Positions 5,071-29,669 of a stretch of 29,669 nucleotides of DNA are shown in pieces. The stretch is taken from positions 1 through 29,669 of the IMG/VR virus record IMGVR_UViG_3300023174_000499; one strand, given 5' to 3'. The translations under genes and the position numbers were made by a program. Numbering within the stretch: position 1 is the stretch's first letter; each line of letters opens with the position of its first letter. The notes beneath the pieces are model-generated. The model was not told where the DNA came from, made no database searches, and was given only the letters and a program-made list of their open reading frames with translations. The stretch comes from a virus.

Positions 5071-5751
5071 TCAGTGAGACTTCTTATACTTTAAGGAGAA
5101 CTTCTCTCCATCTTTCAATCCCTCATTGAACATCTTTTCTGCTACTTCTTCAGAAGGAATTGCAATTGTATAGCTGTCGAAGAGCACTGACGGTTGCGGT
5201 CTAATGTCTGACCCAAAAGACAGTGGCCATGCAGATATTCGAAGAGTGTTGTGGTGCCTTGCAGGCTGGTTGCACAGGAGACCCGCATCCATGTGAAGAT
5301 GTCTATTTTTAAATCGAAGCATGTCATTCATCAGCGGTATAGATGTGCTTGCCTTCAGAGAATTAAACATGTCTCGCTTTGTGTGAAACTCATCAATCAT
5401 TTCATAATTCACACTGAAAGGCCACAATGAGACTCGAGTGTAGCATATGACAAGACGCCCTGTTGTGTGAATATCGTCGGGTGCTTCTTTTTCCATTAGA
5501 TCCACAGCTATCGTAACAGTTCTGCGAGGTTTATCTGTCTTTACAATGTTGGCTATATTAATTGCTCTCTTAAAACCCTCATAGCCATCAAGACCTGATA
5601 AGAAGTGAATTGCTGCACCACCTCCTGCGGACGCTGTGATCCATTCTACCCTGTTGAGATCTATTAGACGATGTTCAGCTAGCTTCTGAATGACTCCATA
5701 GTACCAGAATACTTTCCATCCACAACCACTAAGAGATACTCGAGTGAACAT
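5071..5751 (-). CDS. Patatin-like phospholipase/acyl hydrolase
   Basis: 226 residues, about the size of one patatin (PNPLA) domain. Visible motifs in family order: an N-terminal glycine-containing loop LSGCGWKVFWYYGVIQKL (residues 7-24), the nucleophile elbow ITASAGGG with Ser41, the ASTSIPL segment (134-140) and MDAGLLCNQP with Asp155. Patatins use a Ser-Asp dyad in GxSxG and DG(G/A). Here the first Gly of GxSxG is Ala/Thr (TASAG) and the Asp motif is DAG, so both are slightly divergent but the catalytic residues remain. There is no signal peptide or membrane segment, so it is probably cytoplasmic. It lies on the minus strand between fibre genes and has its own TATAATTA box six nt from ATG with no Shine-Dalgarno sequence. 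A membrane lipid target is inferred; a role in lysis, host takeover or defence is open. Confidence 0.75.
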   Translation of the reverse strand: MFTRVSLSGCGWKVFWYYGVIQKLAEHRLIDLNRVEWITASAGGGAAIHFLSGLDGYEGFKRAINIANIVKTDKPRRTVTIAVDLMEKEAPDDIHTTGRLVICYTRVSLWPFSVNYEMIDEFHTKRDMFNSLKASTSIPLMNDMLRFKNRHLHMDAGLLCNQPARHHNTLRISAWPLSFGSDIRPQPSVLFDSYTIAIPSEEVAEKMFNEGLKDGEKFSLKYKKSH

Positions 5752-12696: not shown

Positions 12697-15600
12697 ATGG
12701 CCGAGCAGACATTCAAGTCGCCCAATTTTTACGAGAGAGAGATTGACCTCTCATCGCCAACAGTCGCTGGCCCATCAGGCGTTCCCGCACTTGTGATCGG
12801 TACTTCGAACAAGGGACCTGCATTCGTTCCTTCGACTGTGGCAAACTTCAGCGAGTTCACAACGTCTTTCGGTGGTCTTGATGTCAAGTACTTTGGACCA
12901 TATGCAGTGAACGAGTTCTTAAAGCACAGAAGTGCATTGACCTACATGAGAGTCCTTGGCTCCGGTGCAAATTCATCGGATTCAGATTTAAATCGAACTC
13001 TCACTTATGGGACTGTTCTCAATGCTGGATTTAGGCTTAAGGGACAGGCTACAAACCAATCAGGCGACGGAAGATATAACGGGGTTATGCAGTTCATCTC
13101 TGCAAAACACGTATATTCAACTGTCGGTTCGACAGGTTTCCCCGTATTTGACAATAATTCAACTTTTGCAGGGTCTAATTATGCAAACCTTGTAAGGGCT
13201 GCAATCATGACACCCAACACATCAAGGGTGATGATTCTCACTTCTTCGGGTGGCGCATCTTCTGTCGGTGCTTCACTTAATGACTCCACAGTTGCCTCTC
13301 ATGAAGGCAAATTCAATGTCGTCATTTCTTCGTCTCTGGGGTCTGACTTCTATACGACAGACGGTACCACCGGTGTGAAGATCTTCTCGGTCTCTCTCGA
13401 TCCTTCAAGCAAGGACTACGTCGGAAAAGTCCTCAACAGAGATCCTGACAAGTTCGTACAAGAGCAGCACTATTTGCATGCGGATTTTCCAGTCGATGTC
13501 AATGTTGCATATGTCAGCGGTACATGCCCCATTGCAATCATGTCTGGTTCACAGAATGTATCTTCAAATGGAGATTCATCGAGGAATTTCCTTCAGGTTT
13601 TCGGTTCATACGATGCAAGATTCCAAGCTCCACAGACGAGCTACTTCATATCACAGCCCTTTGGTACAACCGAGTATGATCTCTTTAAATTTGAGGCGCT
13701 TGACGACGGTGAGTACGCCAACAAGCTCTACAAGATCTCGATCAGCAACATTAAGGCTTCAGTCAATGATGCAAACAAGTACGGCACATTCAGCGTCCAG
13801 GTCCGTGACTGGAATGACACTGACACTTCGCTGAACATCATTGAGCAGTTCACAAACTGCACACTCGACCCTAATTCAGACAATTATATTGCTAAGCTCA
13901 TCGGAGACAGAAAGGTATTCTACAACTTCGATGCTGTCAATAGCTCTGAGAAGAGATTGGTTGCTACAGGCAAATATAACAACAACTCAAGATACATAAG
14001 GGTTGTCATGAATGCAGAGATTGAGGGCGGAAATGTTCCTCAAGAGTCTTTGCCTTTTGGATTTAGAGGCCCAGATCTCATCAATGTCAATCCATCATCT
14101 AAGTACAATGATGTGCTTTCTGTTTCAAATTCAAGGCTTACTGGAAAGCTTGGTTCTTACACTGAGCTCAGCAGCTCTTTCCTTCCCCCAGTCCCACACA
14201 GATACAAGGTGACCAGAGGAGAACTATCTGGCGCAGGTTTTGATGGATCACCAGGACCATCAGAACAGGCAAACACTGCCTATTATTGGGGAGTTAAGTT
14301 TGAAAGAACGAGCACTTCTTCTGACCCAATGTCGTCAGACATTCTTAATTCGAATGTCGTCAATGAGAAGAATGGTCTTCTTGAGTCATATACCAAATTT
14401 ATGGGAATCAAGAAGCTTGACGCTCTTGTGACCGGATCAACCAAAGACACATTGAATAGCAACAAATTTAGCCTTTCAAAAGTTGCTCTTTATAACACGT
14501 CGTTCGATCATCTCACGAGCTCAATCAACAACCACATGAAGGAAGCTGCTTATATTAGGGATGCTTCTCTTGATACAACAGATTATACGTGGAACGAGAA
14601 CAACCGAAGAAGAATTACTTTTGCGACCCTTCTCTCGTCAGGATCAGCTGCTCTTTTCAACAGATTTTCAGCCTACTCGAAGTTCACAAGCTTCATGTAT
14701 GGTGGATTTGATGGAACAAACTTCCTCAACAGAGACGCTCGACGTCTTAATGACAAGTCTGTTTCTTTTGACTCTGATGCAGGTGGATCAGGCGGTGCTT
14801 CTTCTGGGTTCATTCCGGAAGGATTCCCTGCTGGCTACAATCCCTCAGGCGAGGACGTCAAGAACAATGGAGTTGCTTCTTATCTTACTGCTGTCGAAGT
14901 GGCAACAGACCCACTTAAGGCAAACAACAACATCCTTGCAATCCCAGGAATTCGTGAGTCATACATCACCGATCAGGCCTCAGCCAAAGTCCGAGAATAT
15001 GGTCTTTCAATGTACGTCATGGACATCCCCTCCTATGACGACAATGGATACAGAATGTACGACGACGCTACGGTCAAACCAAATGTCAATCGCACTACAA
15101 CAAACTTTGACAACAGAGTCATTGACAACAACTACACAGCAGTCTACTATCCCGACATCTTTATTGATGATGCAACAAACCGTCGCAAGGTGAAGGTTCC
15201 TGCTTCTGTTGCCGCACTGGGTGCATTGGCCTTCAATGACAGGGTTGAATATCCTTGGTTTGCACCTGCAGGATTCAATAGAGCGTCCCTTGACTTCGTC
15301 ACAAATATTGCAGTTCGCCTCGGAAGCGCTGACAGAGACCGCCTTTACGAGTCACGCATTAATCCGATCGCTTCATTCCCGAGGCTCGGATATGTGATCT
15401 ACGGACAGAAGACACTTCAGATCAATAAATCGGCACTCGACCGCGTCAATGTACGCAGATTGATGCTAGAGATCAAGAGAATAATCATTGGAATTGCACA
15501 AAGGATTGTATTTGAACAGAATACTGCTTCGGTCAGAAACAAGTTCGTTGCAGATACATCATTCCAGCTTGGCCTTATCCAAGCCCAGGCTGGAGTCGAG

Positions 15601-15753
15601 GCATTCCAGGTTGTAATGAATGAGTCGAATAACACCCAAGAGGATGTCGATCTCAACCGTCTTAACGGAAGAATTGTCGTTGTTCCGACCCGCGTGGTGG
15701 AATACATCGCGATCGACTTCATCGTGACTAACAGCGGAGTTAGCTTTGTATAA
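12697..15753 (+). CDS. Tail sheath protein, copy 1 (gp18-like)
   Basis: 1018 residues with a strong AAGGAG ribosome site. It forms the contractile sheath around the tail tube. Family signs: the N-terminal NFYEREIDLS, GVPALVIGTSNKGPAFVP and FGPYAVNEFL; C-terminal YPWFAPAGFNR (about 852), DRLYESRINPI, IYGQKTLQ, then SALDRVNVRRLMLEIKR (about 912) and VVPTRVVEYIAIDFIV at the end. These match the phage sheath core domains. T4 gp18 is 659 aa; the extra ~350 residues lie in the middle, as in sheaths of other large marine myophages, and would form outward-facing domains. It is followed by a homing endonuclease and then a second full sheath gene. Which copy dominates in virions is unknown. Confidence 0.93.
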   Translation: MAEQTFKSPNFYEREIDLSSPTVAGPSGVPALVIGTSNKGPAFVPSTVANFSEFTTSFGGLDVKYFGPYAVNEFLKHRSALTYMRVLGSGANSSDSDLNRTLTYGTVLNAGFRLKGQATNQSGDGRYNGVMQFISAKHVYSTVGSTGFPVFDNNSTFAGSNYANLVRAAIMTPNTSRVMILTSSGGASSVGASLNDSTVASHEGKFNVVISSSLGSDFYTTDGTTGVKIFSVSLDPSSKDYVGKVLNRDPDKFVQEQHYLHADFPVDVNVAYVSGTCPIAIMSGSQNVSSNGDSSRNFLQVFGSYDARFQAPQTSYFISQPFGTTEYDLFKFEALDDGEYANKLYKISISNIKASVNDANKYGTFSVQVRDWNDTDTSLNIIEQFTNCTLDPNSDNYIAKLIGDRKVFYNFDAVNSSEKRLVATGKYNNNSRYIRVVMNAEIEGGNVPQESLPFGFRGPDLINVNPSSKYNDVLSVSNSRLTGKLGSYTELSSSFLPPVPHRYKVTRGELSGAGFDGSPGPSEQANTAYYWGVKFERTSTSSDPMSSDILNSNVVNEKNGLLESYTKFMGIKKLDALVTGSTKDTLNSNKFSLSKVALYNTSFDHLTSSINNHMKEAAYIRDASLDTTDYTWNENNRRRITFATLLSSGSAALFNRFSAYSKFTSFMYGGFDGTNFLNRDARRLNDKSVSFDSDAGGSGGASSGFIPEGFPAGYNPSGEDVKNNGVASYLTAVEVATDPLKANNNILAIPGIRESYITDQASAKVREYGLSMYVMDIPSYDDNGYRMYDDATVKPNVNRTTTNFDNRVIDNNYTAVYYPDIFIDDATNRRKVKVPASVAALGALAFNDRVEYPWFAPAGFNRASLDFVTNIAVRLGSADRDRLYESRINPIASFPRLGYVIYGQKTLQINKSALDRVNVRRLMLEIKRIIIGIAQRIVFEQNTASVRNKFVADTSFQLGLIQAQAGVEAFQVVMNESNNTQEDVDLNRLNGRIVVVPTRVVEYIAIDFIVTNSGVSFV

Positions 15754-15792: not shown

Positions 15793-16578
15793 ATGCAACA
15801 GTGGCACGTATACGAAGACTGGACGCTAGAAGAAGCTCCGAGATGCTTTTATGTCGGAAAAGGTAATGATGATCGTGTCGAAAAACTGAAACGATCCAAT
15901 TGTTATCATAGAGAAATTTCCAGTGAATTAGGTCAATGTCGTGTCGTTGTTGCATCAAGTTCAAACGAAGATCAGATTTTAGAGATCGAAAGAAAAATAA
16001 TTTCTGAACGTCACACATACGTAAAAGATCCTGAATACAACGGCATTGGTTGTAATTTAACAAAAGGCGGCCAAGGGAACTCAGGTAGAGTTGTTACCCT
16101 GGAAACACGTCAAAAAATTTCCCAAAGCAAACTCGGTAAAACACCAAATAGAATTTGGACGCAAGAAGATCGGAATGCCGTATCTGAGAGGATGAGCCGT
16201 CTTCATAAAGGTAAAAAGTTGACTGATAATCATCTAAATATTTTAAAAGAAAGAATGGCTAACCCTGACATCAAAAAAGAAATGATTAACAATGTTTCTC
16301 ATTCAATTAAAGAAAAATACAAGAATGATCTTGAATTTAAGGATCGAATAATTCAAACAAGAGTTCGCGGAGAGGATAGCAGAAGCCCATTTACGAACGA
16401 AGAAGTTTTAAGAATGAGATCTGAGTGGGAGCAGTTGGACAGAACAACAAAGGGAAATAAATGGAGTGGTCCGTCACCATCTCAAAAGTTTTGTCAAGAT
16501 TGGGCAGAATTAAAAAGGACTTCTGTTCAGTCAATTTATGCAATTGTAACTCGCAAAACGTGGAGACATCTTCCTTAA
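15793..16578 (+). CDS. GIY-YIG homing endonuclease with NUMOD3-like region
   Basis: 261 residues. The N-terminal ~95 residues form a GIY-YIG nuclease of the variant seen in phages: WHVYED (position of GIY), CFYVGKGNDDRV (19-29; Arg28 a likely catalytic residue), ILEIERKIISE (62-72; Glu64/66 candidate metal ligand), and NLTKGGQG (88-95). Around 105-125 ISQSKLGKTPN matches the NUMOD3 DNA-binding motif, and the C-terminal SxQKFCQDWAELKRTSVQSIYAIVTRKTW may be a helix-turn-helix. It is free-standing between two complete sheath genes, not within an intron. It is AT-richer than the sheaths, consistent with separate mobility. The target site is unknown; by precedent it could be near its own insertion point. 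Confidence 0.88.
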   Translation: MQQWHVYEDWTLEEAPRCFYVGKGNDDRVEKLKRSNCYHREISSELGQCRVVVASSSNEDQILEIERKIISERHTYVKDPEYNGIGCNLTKGGQGNSGRVVTLETRQKISQSKLGKTPNRIWTQEDRNAVSERMSRLHKGKKLTDNHLNILKERMANPDIKKEMINNVSHSIKEKYKNDLEFKDRIIQTRVRGEDSRSPFTNEEVLRMRSEWEQLDRTTKGNKWSGPSPSQKFCQDWAELKRTSVQSIYAIVTRKTWRHLP

Positions 16579-16635: not shown

Positions 16636-19600
16636 ATGGCACAACTGAAATTCGGAAGCGCAGGCGTAACGGCAAGAGAGATTGACATCTCAGGCCCGAC
16701 TACACGTCAACCTGCTGGTATACCTGCAGGAATAGTTGGTACTTCACTTAAAGGCCCAGCTTTCGTTCCGGTCACCGTCGGCAACACTTCTGACTGGTTT
16801 TCAAAGTTTGGTAATACAGACGGCAAGAAGTTTGGTCCTCTTGCCGTCGTTGAATGGCTTCGCAATGCACAGTCAGTTACTTATCTTAAGGTCCTCGGTG
16901 CCGGTGATGGCCTCAAGAGAGATACTTCTGCCAATGATGCTCCTGGCAAGGTCACAAGCGCCGGCTTTGTCGTCGGAGAAGAGCTTCCTAACAGAGCCGA
17001 TCCTTCCACAGACACCGGCGTGATTGCTCCTAACTACTATGCAGTCGCCGGAGGAGATGAAGGTCGTATATATTTCCTTGGATGTTTCATGTCTGAGTCT
17101 GTTGGGTCCACGGTGTTCAGCGATGCAGGCCTTCAAGGAGCAGGTTCTTCTACCCTAAGCTCTTCAGGGTCAATTCCTATCGTCAGAGGCGTCTTAATGG
17201 CTCCTTCGGGTGTTCTCCTCACTCTTTCTTCTTCTGCATTCGGAACTAACAACACAGTTCAGTCTCCTGCAGTCGCCGGAGTCTCGGCGAATGCAAGGGG
17301 TGACAGCCTTGGAACAGTTGTTCTTTCTCAGACCGTCGGGTCAGCCGTTGTCCCAAAGCAAGAGTTCGTTATGATCCTTAACGGTCACAAGGGAACAGAT
17401 GCAAAGTATCCCAATGTCCTCACAGCATCATTCGACGTTACTTCAAAGTCGACGTACTTTTCCAATGTTTTCAACACAGACCCTCAGAAGATTGAAGAAG
17501 CAGGCCACTACCTCTATGCAAACTGGGACATCCATCCGTCGCTTGGTGTTGTGACAGGTTCTGGAACCATTCATCCTGTCAGCGGAGCAGGAGCAAACAA
17601 CGGCAAAGAGACATGTGCATTCCTTTTGACTGGAGCGAACAACAGAAATGTAGGAACCACTACGTCACCTAACTACGAGAACTTCGAGGATCGATTCGGT
17701 CACTCAGTTTCTCCTTGGGTCGTCTCACAAAAGTTTGGTGGAAAAGCTCAGAACCTCTTTAGACTGCATGCCCTCGACGACGGTGCTGGAGTCTCTACAA
17801 ACTTTAAGGTATCCATTGAGAATCTCACAGTCTCTAATGACCCACTTAACAAGTATGGTTCATTCAACATTGTCCTTCGGTATTGGGACGACAGAGACCA
17901 AGACAGGAGAAACATCCCCAAGGAAGTCTACAGTGGTGTAAACCTTGACCCATCATCTGATCGATACATTGGCAAGGTGATAGGAGATGTCCATGCATAC
18001 TTTGACTTTGACCGTGATGAGTCTGAGCAGAAGCTCGTCGTCGAAGGAAACTACGAGAACCGCTCCAACTACGTGAGGGTTGAGATCCACCCAGACGTGG
18101 AGAACGGTTTTGTCGACCCCAGCGCAATGCCTATGGGCTTTAGAGGAGTCGATCACCTCGTCACCTCGGGATCTGCACCTCTTAGTGGTTTTGGTTCAAA
18201 CGCCACGGGAGCCCTCTTGGCGGCAGCATCCAACTTCTCGAAGAGGTCTGTCACTCCTCCTGTTCCTTTCAGACATAAGCTCACAACTGGGTCTGAATGG
18301 TCAGTGAAGGAGCAAGTAAACTCTCTCTTCTACTGGGGAGTTCAGTTCGAGCACCCAGAGTCGGTTGCAAAGAAGAATGGAAGCATACTCCCAAATGCCT
18401 CTCTCAAGTCCTTTGCAAAATACTTCCCGGGCTTCGTCACTGGCGACGCTAAATTCTCCACAGGAAGCAACGTCGGGCAACAAGACACAGCAGATTGGGG
18501 TATCATCGACGCCGATAGGTTCTGCAACAACTTCTTCTCTCTTGAGAACATCCAAGTCGTCACCGGTTCAAATGGACTTGCAGATTCATCCAAGTGGGCA
18601 AAGGCAGTGTACGTTAGAAAAGGCAACGTCGGAACGTATGCCTCCTCTTCATTTGCCGACAACGACGACGACGACATCCTCAAGGTCAGAGCGTTCAAGG
18701 CAGAGGACATCAATACAAACAAGCAATTTGCCAAGTTCTCCTTCTTGATGCAAGGTGGGTTCAACGGCGTCAACATCTTCGACCCAGATGAGTCGGAGAT
18801 CAATAACAATGCAGTGTCTGCCGACATGAATGTCGCCGCCGGAAGAGGCATTGAGATGGGACCGAACGTCCGGGCATACATTAAGGCACTCGATGTCATG
18901 AAAAACACGTCGAATGTTGACATTCAGCTCCTCGCCATCCCAGGCATCCGTGAGACAATTGTTACAGACTCTGCTACACTCGCAGTCGAAGAGAGGTTCG
19001 ATGCCCTCTACATCATGGACGTCGAGCAGCTTGATGAGAATGGCAATGATGTCACAACAGATTCTCAGCTTCCTTCGGTCATTAAGACGGTCGACAACTT
19101 CACGAACCGTTCGGTTGACTCCTCGTTCGCTGCAGCTTACTTCCCGGACGTCCTCTACCGTGACCCAATCGGTAGCAACTTGTTCGTCCCACCGTCGGTC
19201 GTTGTCCTCGGTGCATTGTCTCTTAACGACTCGCTCGGCCACCCATGGTTCGCCCCCGCTGGTTTCAGCCGCGGTGCTCTCCCAGACGTCGCCCTCGAAC
19301 CACGCGTAGGACTAAGCCAGAACGACATGGACAGGCTCTACGACTTCTCGATCAACCCAATAGTTGCTTTCCCGGGCAATGTTCAGTCGGGAACAAACCC
19401 ACGGGGTGGAATCGTCGTCTGGGGACAGAAGACACTTCAAGTCGCTGCCTCAGCTCTCGACAGAGTCAATGTCCGTCGACTTCTCATCGACATCCGCCGT
19501 CAGGTCCGCGACATCGCGCAGACGATCCTCTTTGAACCGAACCGTGAGGCGACTCTCGCCCGCTTCTCTGCCGCAGTCACACCGCGTCTCCAGAGAATTC

Positions 19601-19773
19601 AGTCTCTTTCCGGACTTGAGAGGTTCAAGGTCGTGATTGATTCTTCGACAACGACACAAGATGACGTACTGAATAACACGATACGTGGTAAGATATTCGT
19701 GCAGCCCACGAAGAGCATTGAATTCGTCTCGCTCGACTTCGTGGTCGCCAACAACCTCACCCAGGTTCAGTGA
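16636..19773 (+). CDS. Tail sheath protein, copy 2 (gp18-like)
   Basis: 1045 residues, paralogous to the sheath at 12697. Shared landmarks: AREIDISGPT, GIPAGIVGTSLKGPAFVPVTV, FGPLAVVEWL; late ones HPWFAPAGFSRGALPDV (about 870), DRLYDFSINPI, VWGQKTLQ, ALDRVNVRRLLIDIRRQ (about 940), and VQPTKSIEFVSLDFVV at the end. Both termini are well conserved between the copies while the middle (about 200-800) diverges strongly. All core sheath elements are intact, so it is likely functional. The last third is richer in C/G-ending codons than sheath 1, so the copies are not a recent duplication. It has its own promoter box and ribosome site and is flanked by a homing endonuclease on each side, with a small gene between it and the downstream one. 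Confidence 0.92.
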   Translation: MAQLKFGSAGVTAREIDISGPTTRQPAGIPAGIVGTSLKGPAFVPVTVGNTSDWFSKFGNTDGKKFGPLAVVEWLRNAQSVTYLKVLGAGDGLKRDTSANDAPGKVTSAGFVVGEELPNRADPSTDTGVIAPNYYAVAGGDEGRIYFLGCFMSESVGSTVFSDAGLQGAGSSTLSSSGSIPIVRGVLMAPSGVLLTLSSSAFGTNNTVQSPAVAGVSANARGDSLGTVVLSQTVGSAVVPKQEFVMILNGHKGTDAKYPNVLTASFDVTSKSTYFSNVFNTDPQKIEEAGHYLYANWDIHPSLGVVTGSGTIHPVSGAGANNGKETCAFLLTGANNRNVGTTTSPNYENFEDRFGHSVSPWVVSQKFGGKAQNLFRLHALDDGAGVSTNFKVSIENLTVSNDPLNKYGSFNIVLRYWDDRDQDRRNIPKEVYSGVNLDPSSDRYIGKVIGDVHAYFDFDRDESEQKLVVEGNYENRSNYVRVEIHPDVENGFVDPSAMPMGFRGVDHLVTSGSAPLSGFGSNATGALLAAASNFSKRSVTPPVPFRHKLTTGSEWSVKEQVNSLFYWGVQFEHPESVAKKNGSILPNASLKSFAKYFPGFVTGDAKFSTGSNVGQQDTADWGIIDADRFCNNFFSLENIQVVTGSNGLADSSKWAKAVYVRKGNVGTYASSSFADNDDDDILKVRAFKAEDINTNKQFAKFSFLMQGGFNGVNIFDPDESEINNNAVSADMNVAAGRGIEMGPNVRAYIKALDVMKNTSNVDIQLLAIPGIRETIVTDSATLAVEERFDALYIMDVEQLDENGNDVTTDSQLPSVIKTVDNFTNRSVDSSFAAAYFPDVLYRDPIGSNLFVPPSVVVLGALSLNDSLGHPWFAPAGFSRGALPDVALEPRVGLSQNDMDRLYDFSINPIVAFPGNVQSGTNPRGGIVVWGQKTLQVAASALDRVNVRRLLIDIRRQVRDIAQTILFEPNREATLARFSAAVTPRLQRIQSLSGLERFKVVIDSSTTTQDDVLNNTIRGKIFVQPTKSIEFVSLDFVVANNLTQVQ

Positions 19774-20186: not shown

Positions 20187-20217
20187 AGGACAGGATGAGA
20201 GATTCCTGTCCTTTTTT
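20187..20217. terminator. Rho-independent terminator, probably bidirectional
   Basis: AGGACAGGA (20187-20195) pairs perfectly with TCCTGTCCT (20204-20212) around an 8-nt loop, followed by TTTTTT. On the opposite strand the hairpin is followed by a T-rich tract (from AAAAAACAAAGAAGG upstream). It lies between convergent genes and would stop both the sheath-operon transcript and the endonuclease transcript, whose TGA overlaps the T-run. Confidence 0.88.
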
Positions 20218-21875
20218 CATAGGTTCATCTCGTACACAACATTCTCACATCCCCATATCTTGACGACACCTGCAGCTTCTGCCACATCGGATTCCGTTAG
20301 TCCGTTCTTTGAGTCCGCTCTGTACTTAAATCTATTGAACCTGTTTTTAAAGTCTGTCCACCAAAACCTTGGAGGAGTCTTGCTTGTTGCCTTGAATCCT
20401 GAGGACGCATAACCTTCACCTACTCCACCGAGACGAGTGTCAACATATGTCATCAGCATCCTGATTCCTTCTTTTCTATATTCGTCTGACACTGTCTTCA
20501 CGAGCCTACTGAGACCTCCTTGTACATTGCATCCTTTTTTGGGGCAGCAGCGTGCAATTTCCATTGTCGATTCTTTCTTGTGGAAAGGCTTCCTGACGGA
20601 GATGGCATACACAATTGTTTCGTCGTACACTAGTCCCCATGACTTCGAAGACGCCGTATCGCCGTCTATGTGATTATCTTCAAAGAACGATTTTCTCTCC
20701 TGCGGAGACAGCTCTCTTATCGAACACTTACGAGCACCTATCTTGTTAGGCGACATCCCTATGCGGGAGAGGATCATCGACTTGACTATCTCCGATTTGT
20801 CTCTCCATTCGTCTTCGAACACGTGCATCATGCTTATTCCTGCCCTTCCTGCCGCCGCCGTCTTGTTGGAATGGTAGAGCGCAGAACGATTCACGTGGGA
20901 ATGCCAATACAGGCCGTTGTACTCCACTGCAAAATCGAGATTTTTGACGTGTATGTCTAGTTCGAGCCCGTTGTCGAGCACAGATCGGTCATTCCTCTTT
21001 ATCTCGACGCCCATCTTTTCGATCCATCTTGCCAATTTCTCTTGTGCCGCAGATCCTCCGGGAGAACACTTGAAGCACTTACCATACTGGAGCGACCTAA
21101 GGGATCCGGTGAACTGTTCTCCGCAACCAGAGCACTCCACTTGTATCACTTTCTGTGCGTCGTTGACATACTCCTCGAGCCCTCCTACGACCTTCAGTGT
21201 TCCCAGGTCTTCGATCCTTGTTCTTATTTCTTCGACAGGAAGCCTCTTCATTGCATCGAGCCTCCGCCTGATGTTTTCCTGTCGCATCGTCAGAGACACC
21301 CTCGATGCCATCGCAGCTATCCTCTCGTCCGAGTCCTTTGACAACCCCTTTGCCCACGGAATTATTTCCCCTGCGGCATAGGCGCTCTTTAGGTTCTCTG
21401 CCGCTGCAGCGATTCGCTCGTCGGTCGTTGCCGTCTTGCCCTTGTTCCAAGACACTATTTCTTTTCGATTGAAAGCTGCCTTTCTGCCTTCTGATGTCGC
21501 TGCTCCTCGGGCCGCTATCCTCTCGTCCGTCTCCTTTCTGAGGCCTTTTGCCCACGACGTCTTTCCCCTAAGAGACTCCGAACGTTTCCTCGATATTTCT
21601 GCAGCTTCTTCTGGAGAGCAGACCGAGTATATCGACGCATTGTGACCATTTGCGACTCTCGAGTATCCTGCCCACCATCCGTTCCACCTCGTCTCTGTGC
21701 CGCATCCGCATGCACACCGGGCAGGACCTCCGTTCGTTGAATCCCACAGCTCCTTTGCAGTTGTTCCGTGTGATTCTTTTAGATGGTCTTCGAATGTCGT
21801 CAATTTCTTGCTGCTGAACTGCGAGCAGAGCGGGCATTCTACCCTTCTCATTTCTTTGCCTTTAATAGCACCCAT
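20217..21875 (-). CDS. EDxHD/VSR-like homing endonuclease with zinc fingers (I-Bth0305I-type)
   Basis: 552 residues. Order: a C2H2-like finger (C14, C17, H31, H36); a CACGCGTETRW...NGH segment (54-78); three spaced repeats of the form (S/P)WxKGxxxxxDERIAA at 107, 142 and 173; a CxxC...CxxC zinc ribbon (248, 251, 267, 270); and a nuclease core with ELDIHVKNLDFAVEYNGLYWH (from 305) and HVFEDEW (351-357). The ExDxH plus YNGLYWHS signature is that of EDxHD homing endonucleases related to VSR/PD-(D/E)XK enzymes. The C-terminal ~180 residues (ARKCSIRELS, NHIDGD, PPRFWW) match the extension usual in this family. It lies against the late genes, between sheath 2 and tail tube. Its start codon is within a hairpin behind a TATAAT box. 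Confidence 0.85.
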   Translation of the reverse strand: MGAIKGKEMRRVECPLCSQFSSKKLTTFEDHLKESHGTTAKELWDSTNGGPARCACGCGTETRWNGWWAGYSRVANGHNASIYSVCSPEEAAEISRKRSESLRGKTSWAKGLRKETDERIAARGAATSEGRKAAFNRKEIVSWNKGKTATTDERIAAAAENLKSAYAAGEIIPWAKGLSKDSDERIAAMASRVSLTMRQENIRRRLDAMKRLPVEEIRTRIEDLGTLKVVGGLEEYVNDAQKVIQVECSGCGEQFTGSLRSLQYGKCFKCSPGGSAAQEKLARWIEKMGVEIKRNDRSVLDNGLELDIHVKNLDFAVEYNGLYWHSHVNRSALYHSNKTAAAGRAGISMMHVFEDEWRDKSEIVKSMILSRIGMSPNKIGARKCSIRELSPQERKSFFEDNHIDGDTASSKSWGLVYDETIVYAISVRKPFHKKESTMEIARCCPKKGCNVQGGLSRLVKTVSDEYRKEGIRMLMTYVDTRLGGVGEGYASSGFKATSKTPPRFWWTDFKNRFNRFKYRADSKNGLTESDVAEAAGVVKIWGCENVVYEMNL

Positions 21876-21985: not shown

Positions 21986-22477
21986 ATGGCTGCTGAGACG
22001 CTCGACGTTACATCAATGATTCCTGCAAAATTCGAACCCAAGCGTAAAAACAGATGGGTGCTTATGATCGAGGGCATCGACGCCTACATCATCAAGACCA
22101 CGGCACGTCCCACGATCACGACGGAAGAAGTTGAAGTTCCCTTCATCAACAGCCGCCGTTACCTCGCCGGAAAGACCACCTTCGGTACAATGGCCGTCAC
22201 CCTCCACGACCCGATCGCCCCGTCGGGCGCTCAGCAGGTCATGGAATGGGTCCGCACCCACTTTGAGTCGGTCTCAGGCCGCAGCGGCTACGCCGACTTC
22301 TACAAGCGCGACATACAGCTCAAGCTCCTCGATCCTGTAGGAACAGTGGTCGAACTCTGGGATATAAAGGGAGCTTTTATAACAGAGGCCAACTTCGGTG
22401 AAGTTACCTACGAAGACGGTGGACCGACTGAAATATCTCTCACGCTTCGCTTCGACAACTGTGTTCTGCAGTTCTAA
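21986..22477 (+). CDS. Tail tube protein (gp19-like)
   Basis: 163 residues, exactly the length of T4 gp19, with strong ribosome site AAAGGAG. It forms the hexameric rings of the inner tail tube. Features: IPAKFEPKRKNRWVLMIEGIDAY near the N-terminus, a VEVPFINSRRYLAGKTTFGTM segment, MAVTLHDPIAPSGAQQVMEW, then LDPVGTVVELWDIKGAFI, and the closing YEDGGPTEISLTLRFDNCVLQF. This beta-barrel layout is characteristic of T4-like tube proteins. It lies downstream of the sheaths as in T4 (18-19) but is separated from them by an endonuclease. Codons are GC-biased, as expected for an abundant virion protein. Confidence 0.93.
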   Translation: MAAETLDVTSMIPAKFEPKRKNRWVLMIEGIDAYIIKTTARPTITTEEVEVPFINSRRYLAGKTTFGTMAVTLHDPIAPSGAQQVMEWVRTHFESVSGRSGYADFYKRDIQLKLLDPVGTVVELWDIKGAFITEANFGEVTYEDGGPTEISLTLRFDNCVLQF

Positions 22478-25495: not shown

Positions 25496-26368
25496 ATGTC
25501 CGACGATAGAGAGCAGAAGAACGCCATATTTGCACAGCAAGGCCCGACAGGAATTGACCCACGCATGCCCAAGATATCCCAGGTCGACAAGATGAAGGCA
25601 GACTTCGGGATCGAGGTTCCTCACGAGATCGTTCCTCTTCCTTCGAACGGTAAAGTGTATCCTCCCGACTCAGCTCTCCATGGGTCAGAAGTCGTCGAAA
25701 TCAAGGCCATGACTGCAAAGGAAGAAGACATCCTCACGTCACGTGCACTCCTCAAGAAGGGCACGGTCATCTCTGAGCTCATCAAGTCGTGTCTTATCGA
25801 CAGATCTGTGAATCCGCTCGACATGCTCAGCGGAGACAGAAATGCACTCATGGTCGCCATACGCATCACAGGGTACGGTCCTGAGTACATGGTTGAGATG
25901 GAGTGCCCAGAGTGCAACGTCAAGTCTCCTCATGAGTTTAATCTTGCAGCCCTTCCGATCAAGAGGCTCGAGATCGAACCGACAGCACCAGGGTCTAACC
26001 TCTTCGAGTTCGTCCTTCCGATGAGCAAGAAGAATGTCAAGTTCAAGTTCATGACAGGCCGAGACGAAGAAGAGATTGCAGCCCTCGGAGAGAAGCAGAA
26101 GAAGCTTGGACTTCCGACTGACTCTGCCGTCACGACGAACCTTCTGTACTCTATCGTGTCGGTCGACGGTACAGAAGACAGAGGTAAGATCTCAAACTTC
26201 GTCAAGAATATGCCTGCCAGAGACTCGCTGTACCTCCGAAACTACATGCGAGACAATGAACCTGGGATCATCATGAAGCAGGACACGACATGCAACGCCT
26301 GCGGACACTCAGAGGAGGTGAGCATGCCGCTCGGCGTCACCTTTCTTTGGCCTTCGGCCGGACGATAG
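25496..26368 (+). CDS. Baseplate hub/tail-assembly protein (T4 gp26-like, T4_baseplate family)
   Basis: 290 residues. The centre has KAMTAKEEDILTSRALLKKG, an ISELIKSCLID segment and ALMVAIRITGYG, typical of the T4_baseplate (gp26) family. Two CxxC pairs, C137/C140 (CPEC) and C266/C269 (CNAC), can form a zinc ribbon split by an insert. It ends with VTFLWPSAGR. T4 gp26 is 208 aa and acts in baseplate hub assembly. The position just before a small ORF and the tape measure is where phages keep the tail-assembly chaperone. The next ORF is open in the +1 frame over the last 47 bases of this gene, and a TTT-CTT-TGG stretch near the end suggests programmed frameshifting. An AGGAG ribosome site lies 13 bases before ATG. 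Confidence 0.8.
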   Translation: MSDDREQKNAIFAQQGPTGIDPRMPKISQVDKMKADFGIEVPHEIVPLPSNGKVYPPDSALHGSEVVEIKAMTAKEEDILTSRALLKKGTVISELIKSCLIDRSVNPLDMLSGDRNALMVAIRITGYGPEYMVEMECPECNVKSPHEFNLAALPIKRLEIEPTAPGSNLFEFVLPMSKKNVKFKFMTGRDEEEIAALGEKQKKLGLPTDSAVTTNLLYSIVSVDGTEDRGKISNFVKNMPARDSLYLRNYMRDNEPGIIMKQDTTCNACGHSEEVSMPLGVTFLWPSAGR

Positions 26369-26615
26369 AGAATTACTGATATTAGAGCCCACGTTCCTTC
26401 TGATGTATTATGGAGGATTTACGTGGACGGAAGCTCAGACGATTCCCGTCTCTTATAAGCGTTGGTTCATAGAGAGAATCAACAAAGAGTTTAAGAGGTC
26501 GTCTGAGTCTGGACAAACTCAAAGCAGGGCAGCGCACCAAAACACTCCTGACATCAGAGCGTTGCAAGGCAAGACGCGGGCGGAGACGCCATCCAGGCTT
26601 AGACGATTCACTTAA
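26322..26615 (+). CDS. gp51/TAC-like extension, probably made by frameshift from gp26-like gene
   Basis: The frame is open from 26322 (after TGA 26319) to TAA 26615. The only ATG is at 26403 (70 aa, starting MYYGGFTWTEAQTIPVSYKRWF), but no ribosome site precedes it and no ATG, GTG or TTG occurs upstream. The upstream in-frame codons read DDRELLILEPTFLL, leading smoothly into MYYGGFTW, so they look coding. The protein resembles the short T4 gp51-type/tail-assembly partner (xYYGGFTxxEAxxLPVxYRRWFI). It would be reached from the gp26-like frame by a +1 (or -2) shift near 26342-26348, giving a product of about 372 aa. The C-terminal part is basic and polar. If no shift occurs, only the 70-aa form from 26403 would be made. 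Confidence 0.6.
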   Translation, partial: ACRSASPFFGLRPDDRELLILEPTFLLMYYGGFTWTEAQTIPVSYKRWFIERINKEFKRSSESGQTQSRAAHQNTPDIRALQGKTRAETPSRLRRFT

Positions 26616-26972: not shown

Positions 26973-29669
26973 ATGGCCGACCCGAATGATCCTAAAGTAG
27001 CCAAGGAGCTAGCCGAAGCCATGAAGGCTGTCGGAGAGTATGCCGAAGATGCAACTGGTGCATTTGAGCAACAACTAAAGATCGTCTCTCAGATGAGGGA
27101 CGCAATGGAAGAAGTTGCCAAGGTGATGTATGCCTTGTGCCAGCAGGACTGCAAGGCCCTTAATCCTGACGTCTGGAAATCTGTAACAAAAGAGATCCTT
27201 AAAAAAGAGAAGGCAGTCAAGAGCACAACCAAGTCCATCAAGGAGCTGGCCAGGACGCTTGAGAAGGATTTTGCCAAAGCAGCCTACGTTGCAGCGGGAG
27301 CCATAGGAGGTTTGGCCCAAGGATTTAAAAACGTCTTTGCGCTAGGAAAGAGCTTCTTGGGCCTTGCAGGCAGTGTTGCCGGTGCCGTGTGGGAAATAGG
27401 AAAATCAATCCTGTCCATACCTTTAAAGATTATGGAGGGTTTGTTCTCCATGGCATCGAAGGGAGGCAGCAATGAGCTCGACACAGCCCTGCAAGGCATC
27501 GTCAAGAAGTTTGGTGACCTCGAGGGGCCCGCAGCCCGCGCGATAACGCACACCGCCAGAAGCTTTGCAAAGGTAAATGAAGGCGGAATCGACATGTACC
27601 GCGTCTTCGGAAACCTGGCTGAAAGAGTCAAAGCCGTCCAAGAGATGGCCGAAGGTATGGGCGCCACCTATTCCGTCTTTACAGACGAAGTGAATAAAAA
27701 CGGTGTCGCCCTTGCCATATATCAGAAGGGCCTTGGAATATCCAAGGAAGAAATGGAGGGACTTGCAAGGACGGCCCTCAGGACCGACAGGTCCATGTCT
27801 GACGTTGCAAAGAACATGACGAAATACTCGCAAGAGCTGTCTAAGTCATTTGCAGTGCCTGCCAAAGTCATCTCTGCAGACATGGCAAAGGCAATGAAGG
27901 ATCTTGCACACTTCGGTCACCTTGCCGACAATGAGTTGGCAGTCACTGCTGCATTTGCCAACAAGCTCGGAGTGTCTGTCGACAAGTTGACGACCATCAT
28001 GGACGCCACGAAGACATACGACCAGACTTCAGAGTCTGTATCAAAGCTCAACGAGACCTTAAACACAAACATCGACGCCACAAAGCTCATGATGTTGGCG
28101 GAAAAAGGTGGAGGAGCTCAGCTCGAGTACCTCAGGTCTGAACTTAAGGCGGCGGGAAAAGATCTAGGAAACCTCGACTATTTCCAAAGAAATCTCATCA
28201 AGTCTACAAATTTGCTCTCTGACGACCTGATCAACTCAGCACTTGCAAACAAGAACAATGCCGTCTCCATGCAGAAGATGAGCGAGGCTGCCAACAAGGT
28301 CACAAACAAGACATACGAGCAGAAAGATGCCCTCAAAGACCTTAAGAAGGAAATTGAGAAGCGTCCCATGGAAGGCATGCTTGGTGAGGGCGGAATATTC
28401 GACAGACTCATGCAAGGATTTTCGATGGGCATTGAACGATCGCCCATCTTCATGAAACTGATGATGAACCTGAGGCAGATCTTCAGGGACGTCTATTGGG
28501 CAGGATACAGGATGGGTCAGATGTTCGTCGATTTCTTCCCGGGTGTCAAGGACATCATCGAAGGACTTGCCGGCATATTCGATCCTTCAAGGTTCAAGAA
28601 GTTCTTCTCAGAGATTGAAAAGATATTTAAGGATTTCTCTGCCGAAGGAGGAAAAGACGTAAACGGTCTCCTCAAGAATCTTCAGGAAAACTTCTTGAAT
28701 TTCTTTGACAAATCGTCTCCTGCAGGCCAAAAGGTCATCAGCGGATTTGAGAAGTTCTGGTCTGTCATCGCCGGCGTGCTCAACAAGGTCCTTGAGATCG
28801 TCATCGGAAAGATGGCAGACATCGTCAATGCAATAACAGACTTCCTCGTGAACCCAAGGATACCGTCAGGTGCAACAGGAGTCTTGAACGCTGTCGCCTC
28901 GCCCTTCCAGGACGCATTCAACGCCCTCGCCGACAAGCTTTGGCCGGCCGTCCAGAAGTTCTTTGGCGTCTTGTGGGACAAGGTGTCGGACTTTCTGATG
29001 AACGACCCGATGGGGCAGAAGATTGTATCCGGAGCGATTGCGCTCGTGCTCGCACCTGCGATTCTCGGCGGCCTCGCCAACGCCGCCGCGTCAGGCCTTT
29101 TCAAGAGCTTCTCGACGAAATTTTTTGAGGGACTCGCAACTTCGATAGCAAGCAACCAAGCAGGGCACCAAGCCGTCGGTGCTGCTACTGTTCATGCCAC
29201 CGAAGGAGGACTCAATATCGAGCGCTTTCCGCGCCGCCCGAATCCTTCACCTGTTCCCCCAGGCGGAGACGTGCAAGGCCCAGCAAATCAAATGGCCAGC
29301 CAAGGAGCGGCCATCGGTGAGAAAATTAAACCGATGGAAGCTTTTCAAATGAATTTCGCCAAAATTGGTGCAAATTTAATCGGACTCTTTGGGGCTGTTG
29401 CCATTGGATTGGGTGCATTTAAAATTGCCCTCGAAATGGTGAAAGATGTTCCCCCACAGCAAGTAATTAGTGCAGGGATAGTCTTCGGTGCGGTCTCTTT
29501 GATGATGCTTCCCGCCTCCGCCATGGTGACTGCAATGAGCCTTGTCACACCTGCAGCTGTTGGTAATGCCCTCCTCGTCGCAGCCGCCCTCGGCGCATTC
29601 ATGTTGGGTGGTTTAGGTGCTGCACTTGCAGGAATTGCAATTGTTGCCGCAGCCAAACCCAAGACAGAA
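26973..29669 (+). CDS. Tail tape measure protein (3' end outside window)
   Basis: The frame is open from ATG 26973 to the last base (899 codons, no stop). The N-terminal ~100 residues are helical and coiled-coil-like (MKAVGEYAEDATGAFEQ, KSTTKSIKELARTLEKDF). Hydrophobic stretches follow (AAYVAAGAIGGLAQGF, FLGLAGSVAGAVWEIG). The middle is long and helical with sparse Cys/Trp, and the distal part has membrane-like segments (AIALVLAPAILGGLANAAAS, LIGLFGAVAIGLGAFK, GNALLVAAALGAFMLGGLG). This mix of long helices with hydrophobic patches is typical of tape measure proteins, which set tail length and help deliver DNA. The position after the chaperone-like pair supports it. No clear ribosome site precedes ATG. 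T4 gp29 (590 aa) would be the functional counterpart, but no motif similarity was recognised. Confidence 0.75.
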   Translation, partial: MADPNDPKVAKELAEAMKAVGEYAEDATGAFEQQLKIVSQMRDAMEEVAKVMYALCQQDCKALNPDVWKSVTKEILKKEKAVKSTTKSIKELARTLEKDFAKAAYVAAGAIGGLAQGFKNVFALGKSFLGLAGSVAGAVWEIGKSILSIPLKIMEGLFSMASKGGSNELDTALQGIVKKFGDLEGPAARAITHTARSFAKVNEGGIDMYRVFGNLAERVKAVQEMAEGMGATYSVFTDEVNKNGVALAIYQKGLGISKEEMEGLARTALRTDRSMSDVAKNMTKYSQELSKSFAVPAKVISADMAKAMKDLAHFGHLADNELAVTAAFANKLGVSVDKLTTIMDATKTYDQTSESVSKLNETLNTNIDATKLMMLAEKGGGAQLEYLRSELKAAGKDLGNLDYFQRNLIKSTNLLSDDLINSALANKNNAVSMQKMSEAANKVTNKTYEQKDALKDLKKEIEKRPMEGMLGEGGIFDRLMQGFSMGIERSPIFMKLMMNLRQIFRDVYWAGYRMGQMFVDFFPGVKDIIEGLAGIFDPSRFKKFFSEIEKIFKDFSAEGGKDVNGLLKNLQENFLNFFDKSSPAGQKVISGFEKFWSVIAGVLNKVLEIVIGKMADIVNAITDFLVNPRIPSGATGVLNAVASPFQDAFNALADKLWPAVQKFFGVLWDKVSDFLMNDPMGQKIVSGAIALVLAPAILGGLANAAASGLFKSFSTKFFEGLATSIASNQAGHQAVGAATVHATEGGLNIERFPRRPNPSPVPPGGDVQGPANQMASQGAAIGEKIKPMEAFQMNFAKIGANLIGLFGAVAIGLGAFKIALEMVKDVPPQQVISAGIVFGAVSLMMLPASAMVTAMSLVTPAAVGNALLVAAALGAFMLGGLGAALAGIAIVAAAKPKTE

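What the first reader, a model, noticed from the sequence alone, without database searches (positions are those of the whole stretch)
26311..26615. Likely +1 (or -2) programmed frameshift joining the gp26-like protein to a gp51/TAC-like ORF before the tape measure
The downstream ORF is open through the last 47 bases of the gp26-like gene, in the +1 frame. The upstream codons read like protein (DDRELLILEPTFLL) running into the conserved-looking MYYGGFTW. No usable start codon or ribosome site precedes ATG 26403. Near the end of the gp26-like gene lies ACC TTT CTT TGG. A Phe-tRNA on TTT can slip +1 onto TTC without mismatch, and CTT-T resembles the prfB shift site. A purine-rich AGAGGAGG lies further upstream (26311-26318). 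Tail-assembly chaperone pairs directly upstream of the tape measure are known to use frameshifting in many phages, usually -1 and sometimes -2, so a +1 shift would be unusual.
Basis: partly seen in the sequence, partly recalled or inferred. Interest (0 to 1): 0.7.

Follow-up and report, generated by a model that had tools for sequence, protein, structure and literature searches.

The report
Conserved +1 frameshift in phage tail chaperone
In a large group of mostly uncultured T4-like viruses, ribosomes appear to skip one base at an almost invariant TTTYTTTGGCCT sequence to make a longer second form of a tail-building chaperone, a job for which T4 itself is reported to use two separate genes.

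Summary
The gp26-like gene (25496-26368; PF12322) is a tail assembly chaperone (TAC-N). Its last codons carry ACC TTT CTT TGG CCT (26339-26353). The +1 frame is open from 26322 to 26615.

In 249 unique relatives the site reads TTT TTT TGG (186), TTT CTT TGG/TAC (53), TTC TTT TGG (6) or TTT CTA TGG (4). The +1 frame always stays open (at least 54 codons wherever its end is held). Beyond the zero-frame stop and upstream of the window's ATG, that frame is under strong purifying selection (dN/dS about 0.06). Most relatives have no usable start codon there.

Every variant offers UUU followed by a pyrimidine, so tRNA-Phe can re-pair at +1; re-pairing at -2 fails in 63. An upstream Shine-Dalgarno-like GGAGG is also selected, at an unusual 17-23 nt spacing. 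Twelve large genomes hold one TAC-N; eleven hold exactly one C-domain, directly after it in the +1 frame, and none has a detectable second copy.

The fusion aligns collinearly with T4 gp51. T4 is reported to make the short and long forms from separate genes. Here one gene plus a +1 shift does it: a new variant of a known kind. No peptide or reporter evidence exists.

The parts
25496..26368 (+). TAC-N: gp26-like tail assembly chaperone, zero frame, 290 aa, stop TAG 26366-26368
   Evidence: PF12322 T4_baseplate E 6.1e-16; phrog_150 baseplate hub 1.4e-18
26313..26318 (+). SD-like AGGAGG, 23 nt upstream of the slip codon; proposed stimulator
   Evidence: SD-like pentamer within 40 nt upstream in 221/249 relatives against 14% of control windows; Glu codon -7 is GAG in 90/92 (27/27 dereplicated) against 27% expected before GT
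26319..26321 (+). TGA, upstream limit of the open +1 frame
   Evidence: sequence
26342..26353 (+). shift site TTT CTT TGG CCT; proposed slip of tRNA-Phe from TTT 26342-26344 to TTC 26343-26345
   Evidence: tabulated in 249 relatives, all with UUU followed by a pyrimidine at codon 1 or 2
26346..26615 (+). +1-frame TAC C-terminal (T) domain, 89 aa, begins FGLRPDDRELLILEPTFLLMYYGGF, stop TAA 26613-26615
   Evidence: dN/dS 0.057 upstream of the window-ATG column; C-domain alignment of 44 diverse members
25496..26615 (+). TAC-NC fusion, 372 aa if base C26345 is skipped
   Evidence: translation with one four-base step; collinear hhalign match to T4 gp51, E 1.8e-5
26403..26405 (+). ATG inside the C-domain, not a conserved start
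   Evidence: M in 25/190 at this column; no SD
26973..29669 (+). tape measure protein gene (runs off the window)
   Evidence: phrog_4200 tape measure, E 1.5e-4; position
21986..22477 (+). tail tube gene upstream of the TAC
   Evidence: phrog_4542 tail tube, 6.8e-31

Best explanation
One gene makes two tail assembly chaperones. Most ribosomes read the zero frame and stop at TAG 26366, giving TAC-N (290 aa). A minority carry peptidyl-tRNA-Phe on UUU (26342-26344). It slips one base forward onto UUC (26343-26345), and reading resumes at UUU GGC CUU, giving TAC-NC (372 aa) with a C-terminal domain. By analogy with lambda gpG/gpGT, TAC-N would coat the tape measure protein and the C-domain of the rarer TAC-NC would recruit the tail tube protein. 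SHOWN here (comparative): the shift site, the coding +1 frame, the absence of an independent start, the single-copy arrangement, and synonymous selection on the site and on an SD-like element. INFERRED: ribosomal +1 slippage as the mechanism, the exact slip codon, the stimulatory role of the SD-like element and of the waiting UGG codon, the product ratio and the assembly function.
For: (a) Site: TTT TTT TGG 186, TTT CTT TGG/TAC 53, TTC TTT TGG 6, TTT CTA TGG 4 of 249 unique loci. (b) UUU followed by a pyrimidine at codon 1 or 2 in 249/249; UUU_Ynn is reported as especially +1-prone in bacteria (PMC5009743). (c) Codon 1 is TTT in 198/201 against 133 +/- 6 expected from each gene's own Phe usage; the window's gene otherwise prefers TTC (1 TTT, 5 TTC). 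(d) The +1 frame is open in all loci. (e) dN/dS 0.057 over 883 codons in 77 disjoint pairs, strictly after the zero-frame stop and before the window-ATG column. (f) No ATG/GTG/TTG between slip and the conserved Glu column in 144/190, and no start anywhere in the open stretch with an SD-like tetramer upstream in 158/190. (g) Twelve large genomes, among them immuto and Mel-JY01 (both labelled complete genomes): one TAC-N each; in eleven, one C-domain beginning one base after it; RM378's C-domain is too divergent for the model. (h) 8 of 44 C-domains hit phrog_634 (gp51 C-terminal part) and 4 hit phrog_32580 'tail assembly chaperone'; the fusion aligns end to end with gp51. (i) SD-like element under synonymous selection.
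Against: No peptides, reporters or ribosome profiling. Positions 5-12 of the site are constrained in both frames, so part of the invariance is dual coding rather than slippage. The SD-like spacing (16-27 nt) is longer than in characterised cases, so its role is unclear. No conserved downstream RNA structure was found (mean z -0.3 to -0.5). The C-domain model gave no significant fold match. C-domain homology to gp51 taken alone is weak (P 0.0056; no support with a single gp51 sequence).
Confidence: 0.92

Rival explanations
1. -2 ribosomal frameshift, as in phage Mu: the ribosome slips back two bases at the same T-rich site and enters the same frame.
For: Reaches the same frame; the T7 run allows it in 186/249; -2 is known for tail genes of Mu (PMC5009743).
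Against: In 63/249 (CTT, CTA or TCT-forming variants, including the window) the P-site tRNA cannot re-pair two bases back, while +1 re-pairing works in all 249.
Confidence: 0.05
2. The downstream ORF is an independent gene started at ATG 26403 or at an upstream GTG/TTG, with coupled translation.
For: Deposited annotation of some relatives treats it so (Mel-JY01 overlapping CDS; immuto short CDS). In the window clade AGGAGG sits 5 nt before ATG 26324.
Against: No conserved start; the +1 frame is under purifying selection upstream of ATG 26403. ATG 26324 is in the zero frame and would itself need the shift to reach the C-domain.
Confidence: 0.02
3. Transcriptional slippage on the T run changes the mRNA length and fuses the frames.
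For: A run of 7 T in 186/249 loci.
Against: 63/249 loci, the window included, have no run longer than 4 T, yet the same arrangement.
Confidence: 0.01

Closest known systems
Lambda-type gpG/gpGT tail assembly chaperone frameshift (Xu, Hendrix and Duda 2004, cited in PMC3711429; described in PMC5009743)
   Same: Overlapping ORFs directly before the tape measure; [quoted passage not shown] a C-domain without a start of its own.
   Different: Usually -1 on a heptamer. Here the frame is +1, at UUU_Y with a following UGG, in the PF12322 family.
T4 gp26/gp51 (Vladimirov, Gautam and Davidson 2022; known here only through PMC10885494 and PMC12846349)
   Same: Same protein family (PF12322); gp51 matches the fusion end to end.
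   Different: T4 encodes the short and long forms as two separate genes and is described as not frameshifting; here there is one gene.
HSTV-2 (archaeal myovirus) G-T frameshift, 'very likely +1' (PMC5009743)
   Same: +1 direction in a tail chaperone pair.
   Different: Single archaeal virus; its site was not compared here.
Pakpunavirus/Vandenendeviridae TAC -1 shift at GTTTTT (PMC12846349)
   Same: Poly-T site, conserved overlap, downstream part misannotated as a separate gene.
   Different: -1 direction.
prfB (RF2) +1 frameshift, SD + CUU_UGA
   Same: +1 re-pairing at a U-rich codon, with an SD-like element upstream.
   Different: Sense UGG instead of a stop codon; SD 17-23 nt away instead of about 3; CUU in only 53/249.

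Membership tests
Tail assembly chaperone pair expressed by programmed frameshift (TAC-N/TAC-NC) | Two overlapping ORFs between tail tube and tape measure genes | tested here: met
   Tube 21986-22477, TAC 25496-26368, +1 ORF to 26615, tape measure 26973+
[quoted passage not shown]
   249 unique loci
Tail assembly chaperone pair expressed by programmed frameshift (TAC-N/TAC-NC) | Downstream domain translated from the shift, not from its own start | tested here: met
   dN/dS 0.057 upstream of the ATG column; no conserved start
Tail assembly chaperone pair expressed by programmed frameshift (TAC-N/TAC-NC) | Both products seen, minority fusion, needed for tail assembly | not testable with these tools
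   Needs mass spectrometry, reporter or genetics
Lambda-type -1 heptamer frameshift (X XXY YYZ) | Shift into the -1 frame | tested here: not met
   C-domain is in the +1 frame; -1 frame median 12 codons
T4 gp26/gp51 protein family (PF12322) | Sequence membership above the Pfam cut-off | tested here: met
   59.2 bits against a cut-off of 24.5; T4 gp26 and gp51 both hit the same model
T4-type expression by two separate genes (gp26 short, gp51 long) | Two gene copies, the long one in frame | tested here: not met
   One TAC-N in each of 12 large relative genomes and no in-frame copy found; the window itself is a fragment, so this is by relatives
prfB-type +1 site | CUU followed by a stop codon with SD about 3 nt upstream | tested here: not met
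   Second codon CUU in only 53/249, followed by UGG (UAC once), not a stop; SD 16-27 nt away

The most novel reading that the evidence does not exclude
The frameshifting single gene is the ancestral state of the T4-type chaperone and T4's gp26/gp51 pair is a derived duplication; and the far SD-like element (17-23 nt from the slip codon, selected at synonymous sites) is a new kind of +1 stimulator acting outside the spacing so far described, with UGG as the waiting A-site codon.
Probability: 0.35. Interest if true: 0.78.

Novelty: new variant of a known kind. Interest (0 to 1): 0.62.

Why it matters
A major review says G-T frameshifting is conserved in long-tailed phages 'except T4' (PMC5009743), and the T4 group is described as using two genes. 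The data here indicate that a wide, mostly uncultured part of the same protein family uses a +1 shift at an exceptionally conserved site. That supplies more than 200 natural variants for dissecting bacterial +1 frameshifting, a suggestion of how T4 could have lost the shift by duplication, and an annotation error to correct: in the annotated relatives seen, the C-domain is truncated to a short hypothetical ORF or called a separate gene.

Tried and rejected
- Independent start for the +1 ORF: rejected by selection upstream of any shared start.
- -2 shift and transcriptional slippage: rejected by the site variants.
- CUU_U (prfB-like) as the sole slip codon: rejected, since CTA, TTT and TTC-TTT variants exist.
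- Downstream stimulatory RNA structure: no signal in 52 diverse relatives.
- Fold of the C-domain: a helical model (mean pLDDT 77) gave no significant match in PDB or the viral library; best PDB E 3.7, best viral E 0.18.
- Single-sequence hhalign of the C-domain against gp51 gave no support; the profile of gp51 relatives was needed.
- One SP-15 scan returned only SP-15 itself.
- L347 was excluded from the counts because my anchor for it was wrong.
- The 2022 Virology paper on T4-like TACs is not held, so whether it mentions this group could not be checked.

Full report
WHAT IS THERE. The window is a 29.7-kb viral contig fragment with a contractile-tail module: sheath stabiliser (PF16724), two tail-sheath paralogues, tail tube, a gp26-like protein, a small ORF and the tape measure. 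The gp26-like ORF 25496-26368 belongs to PF12322 (59.2 bits, cut-off 24.5). T4 gp26 and T4 gp51 both hit this same model, so they are paralogues, and gp51 has about 50 extra C-terminal residues. The zero frame ends GTC ACC TTT CTT TGG CCT TCG GCC GGA CGA TAG. The +1 frame is open from 26322 to 26615.

IS IT MORE THAN CHANCE. A search with the +1 ORF found 18 viral contigs in which it is 50-78% identical, always after the same site. Searches with the upstream protein from several subclades, plus 15 loci on bacterial and archaeal MAG contigs, gave 249 unique loci with a TGG- or TAC-type site. Three more read TTT TTT TTC, TTC TTT CAT and TTT TTT TAC; each also has an open +1 frame of at least 69 codons. 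In all 249 the +1 frame continues past the zero-frame stop; where its end is held the minimum is 54 codons (median 77), and 11 run off the contig end. The -1 frame has a median of 12 codons. Dereplicated at 60% amino-acid identity, 73 lineages remain: 63 TTTTTTTGG, 7 TTTCTTTGG, 3 TTCTTTTGG.

THE +1 FRAME IS TRANSLATED, AND NOT FROM ITS OWN START. Between the zero-frame stop and the column of the window's ATG 26403, the +1 reading shows 337 third-position differences against 130 first- and 65 second-position ones (77 disjoint pairs, 883 codons), dN/dS about 0.06. That stretch contains no ATG/GTG/TTG up to the conserved Glu column in 144 of 190 loci. Half (95 of 190) have no ATG at all up to the ATG column, and 158 of 190 have no start codon with an SD-like tetramer in front. 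The window against L082 shows it directly: DDRELLILEPTFLL and EDRELLILEPTFLL differ mostly at third positions.

THE SLIP SITE. Codon 1 is TTT in 198 of 201, where the genes' own usage predicts 133 +/- 6. A TTC there would be synonymous in the zero frame, and the +1 frame is not yet being read, so this position has no coding reason to be fixed. Loci are related by descent, so the number is not a probability. All 249 sites hold UUU followed by a pyrimidine, at codon 1 (243) or only at codon 2 (6, TTC TTT TGG). This is the single feature common to all, and it lets tRNA-Phe re-pair one base on without a mismatch. The reviewed literature names UUU_Ynn as especially +1-prone in bacteria (PMC5009743). 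CUU at codon 2 occurs in only 53, and CUA occurs in 4 where a Leu-tRNA could not slip. A -2 slip of the second codon fails in 63. More distant phages with +1 overlap keep the rule: LR756508 TTT CTA TTC, SP-15 TTT TTT CAC, LIS04 TTT TTT AGT, GXN1 TTC TTT CGT, RM378 TTT TTT TGG. Caution: positions 5-12 are read in both frames (Phe/Tyr-Gly-Leu in +1; Phe/Leu-Trp-Pro in zero), which explains part of the invariance.

AN UPSTREAM SD-LIKE ELEMENT. It sits 16-17 nt upstream of the slip codon in the largest marine clade and 22-27 nt upstream in the window's clade. The choice is synonymous: the Glu at codon -7 is GAG in 90 of 92 (27 of 27 dereplicated), whereas GAG before GT is 27% elsewhere in the same genes. 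In the window the +1 frame has a stop right there, so dual coding does not explain it. The spacing is longer than in prfB (about 3 nt) or the -1 cases (about 10 nt; both from general knowledge), so its action is an open question. No conserved downstream RNA structure was found.

WHAT THE PRODUCT IS. The fusion is 372 aa. A profile of 44 diverse fusions aligns with the gp51 family in one collinear alignment across the junction (E 1.8e-5). The C-domain alone matches gp51's C-terminus with P 0.0056, and 8 of 44 C-domains hit phrog_634 (baseplate hub assembly catalyst, which covers the C-terminal part of gp51), 4 hit phrog_32580 'tail assembly chaperone'. In 12 large relative genomes, including immuto and Mel-JY01, there is one TAC-N. 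In eleven of them there is one C-domain, starting one base after it, and nothing else. RM378 has the site, but its C-domain is too divergent for the model. So these viruses show no separate gp51-like gene and would need the shift to make the long form.

RELATION TO WHAT IS KNOWN. Frameshifted tail chaperones are a known kind: -1 in lambda and most phages, -2 in Mu, probable +1 in the archaeal virus HSTV-2 (PMC5009743). T4 is the stated exception; the T4 group is described as carrying a short gene and a long fusion gene (Vladimirov et al. 2022, via PMC10885494). A 2025 paper cites the same work for poly-T signals in TAC-N genes of T4-like phages (PMC12846349), so some awareness of such sites may exist; the original could not be read. 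No held paper describing this +1 site was found. Only a small number of the 50,697 deposited phage records match: 51 records of PF12322-like relatives in all for the window's protein, and 12-14 for two other members of the group, which would explain why it was missed. The annotations seen in Mel-JY01 and immuto treat the C-domain as a separate or truncated ORF.

VERDICT. Mechanistic certainty awaits a junction peptide or a reporter.

Noticed in passing
L104, L109, L110, L374 (Xanthomonas phage XacN1, Serratia phage BF, Pseudomonas phage Paride, Stenotrophomonas phage RAS14): Jumbo-phage members of the same TAC family have the downstream ORF in the -1 frame, with T-rich runs such as AGT TTT TTC or GCT TTT TTT ATT, so the family may use both directions.
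   Followed up: partly
A1 members (C-domains): 14 of 44 C-domains weakly match Pfam DUF6760 (PF20546, best E 5.7e-4); a tail-chaperone C-domain role for that unknown family is a lead. The one search for it elsewhere rang nowhere.
   Followed up: partly
25496-26365 and relatives: TGG is almost absent from TAC-N upstream of the shift site (20 of 48,231 codons over 201 loci), so the Trp codon at the site is nearly the only one in the gene.
   Followed up: no
15793-16578 (+) and 20217-21875 (-): Two homing-endonuclease-like genes (phrog_314 2.9e-8; phrog_3339 4.9e-71) inserted in the tail module, one between the two sheath genes.
   Followed up: no
12697-15753 and 16636-19773: Two different tail-sheath-like proteins of more than 1000 aa in tandem.
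   Followed up: no
5071-5751 (-): A patatin-like phospholipase-like ORF just below the Pfam cut-off.
   Followed up: no
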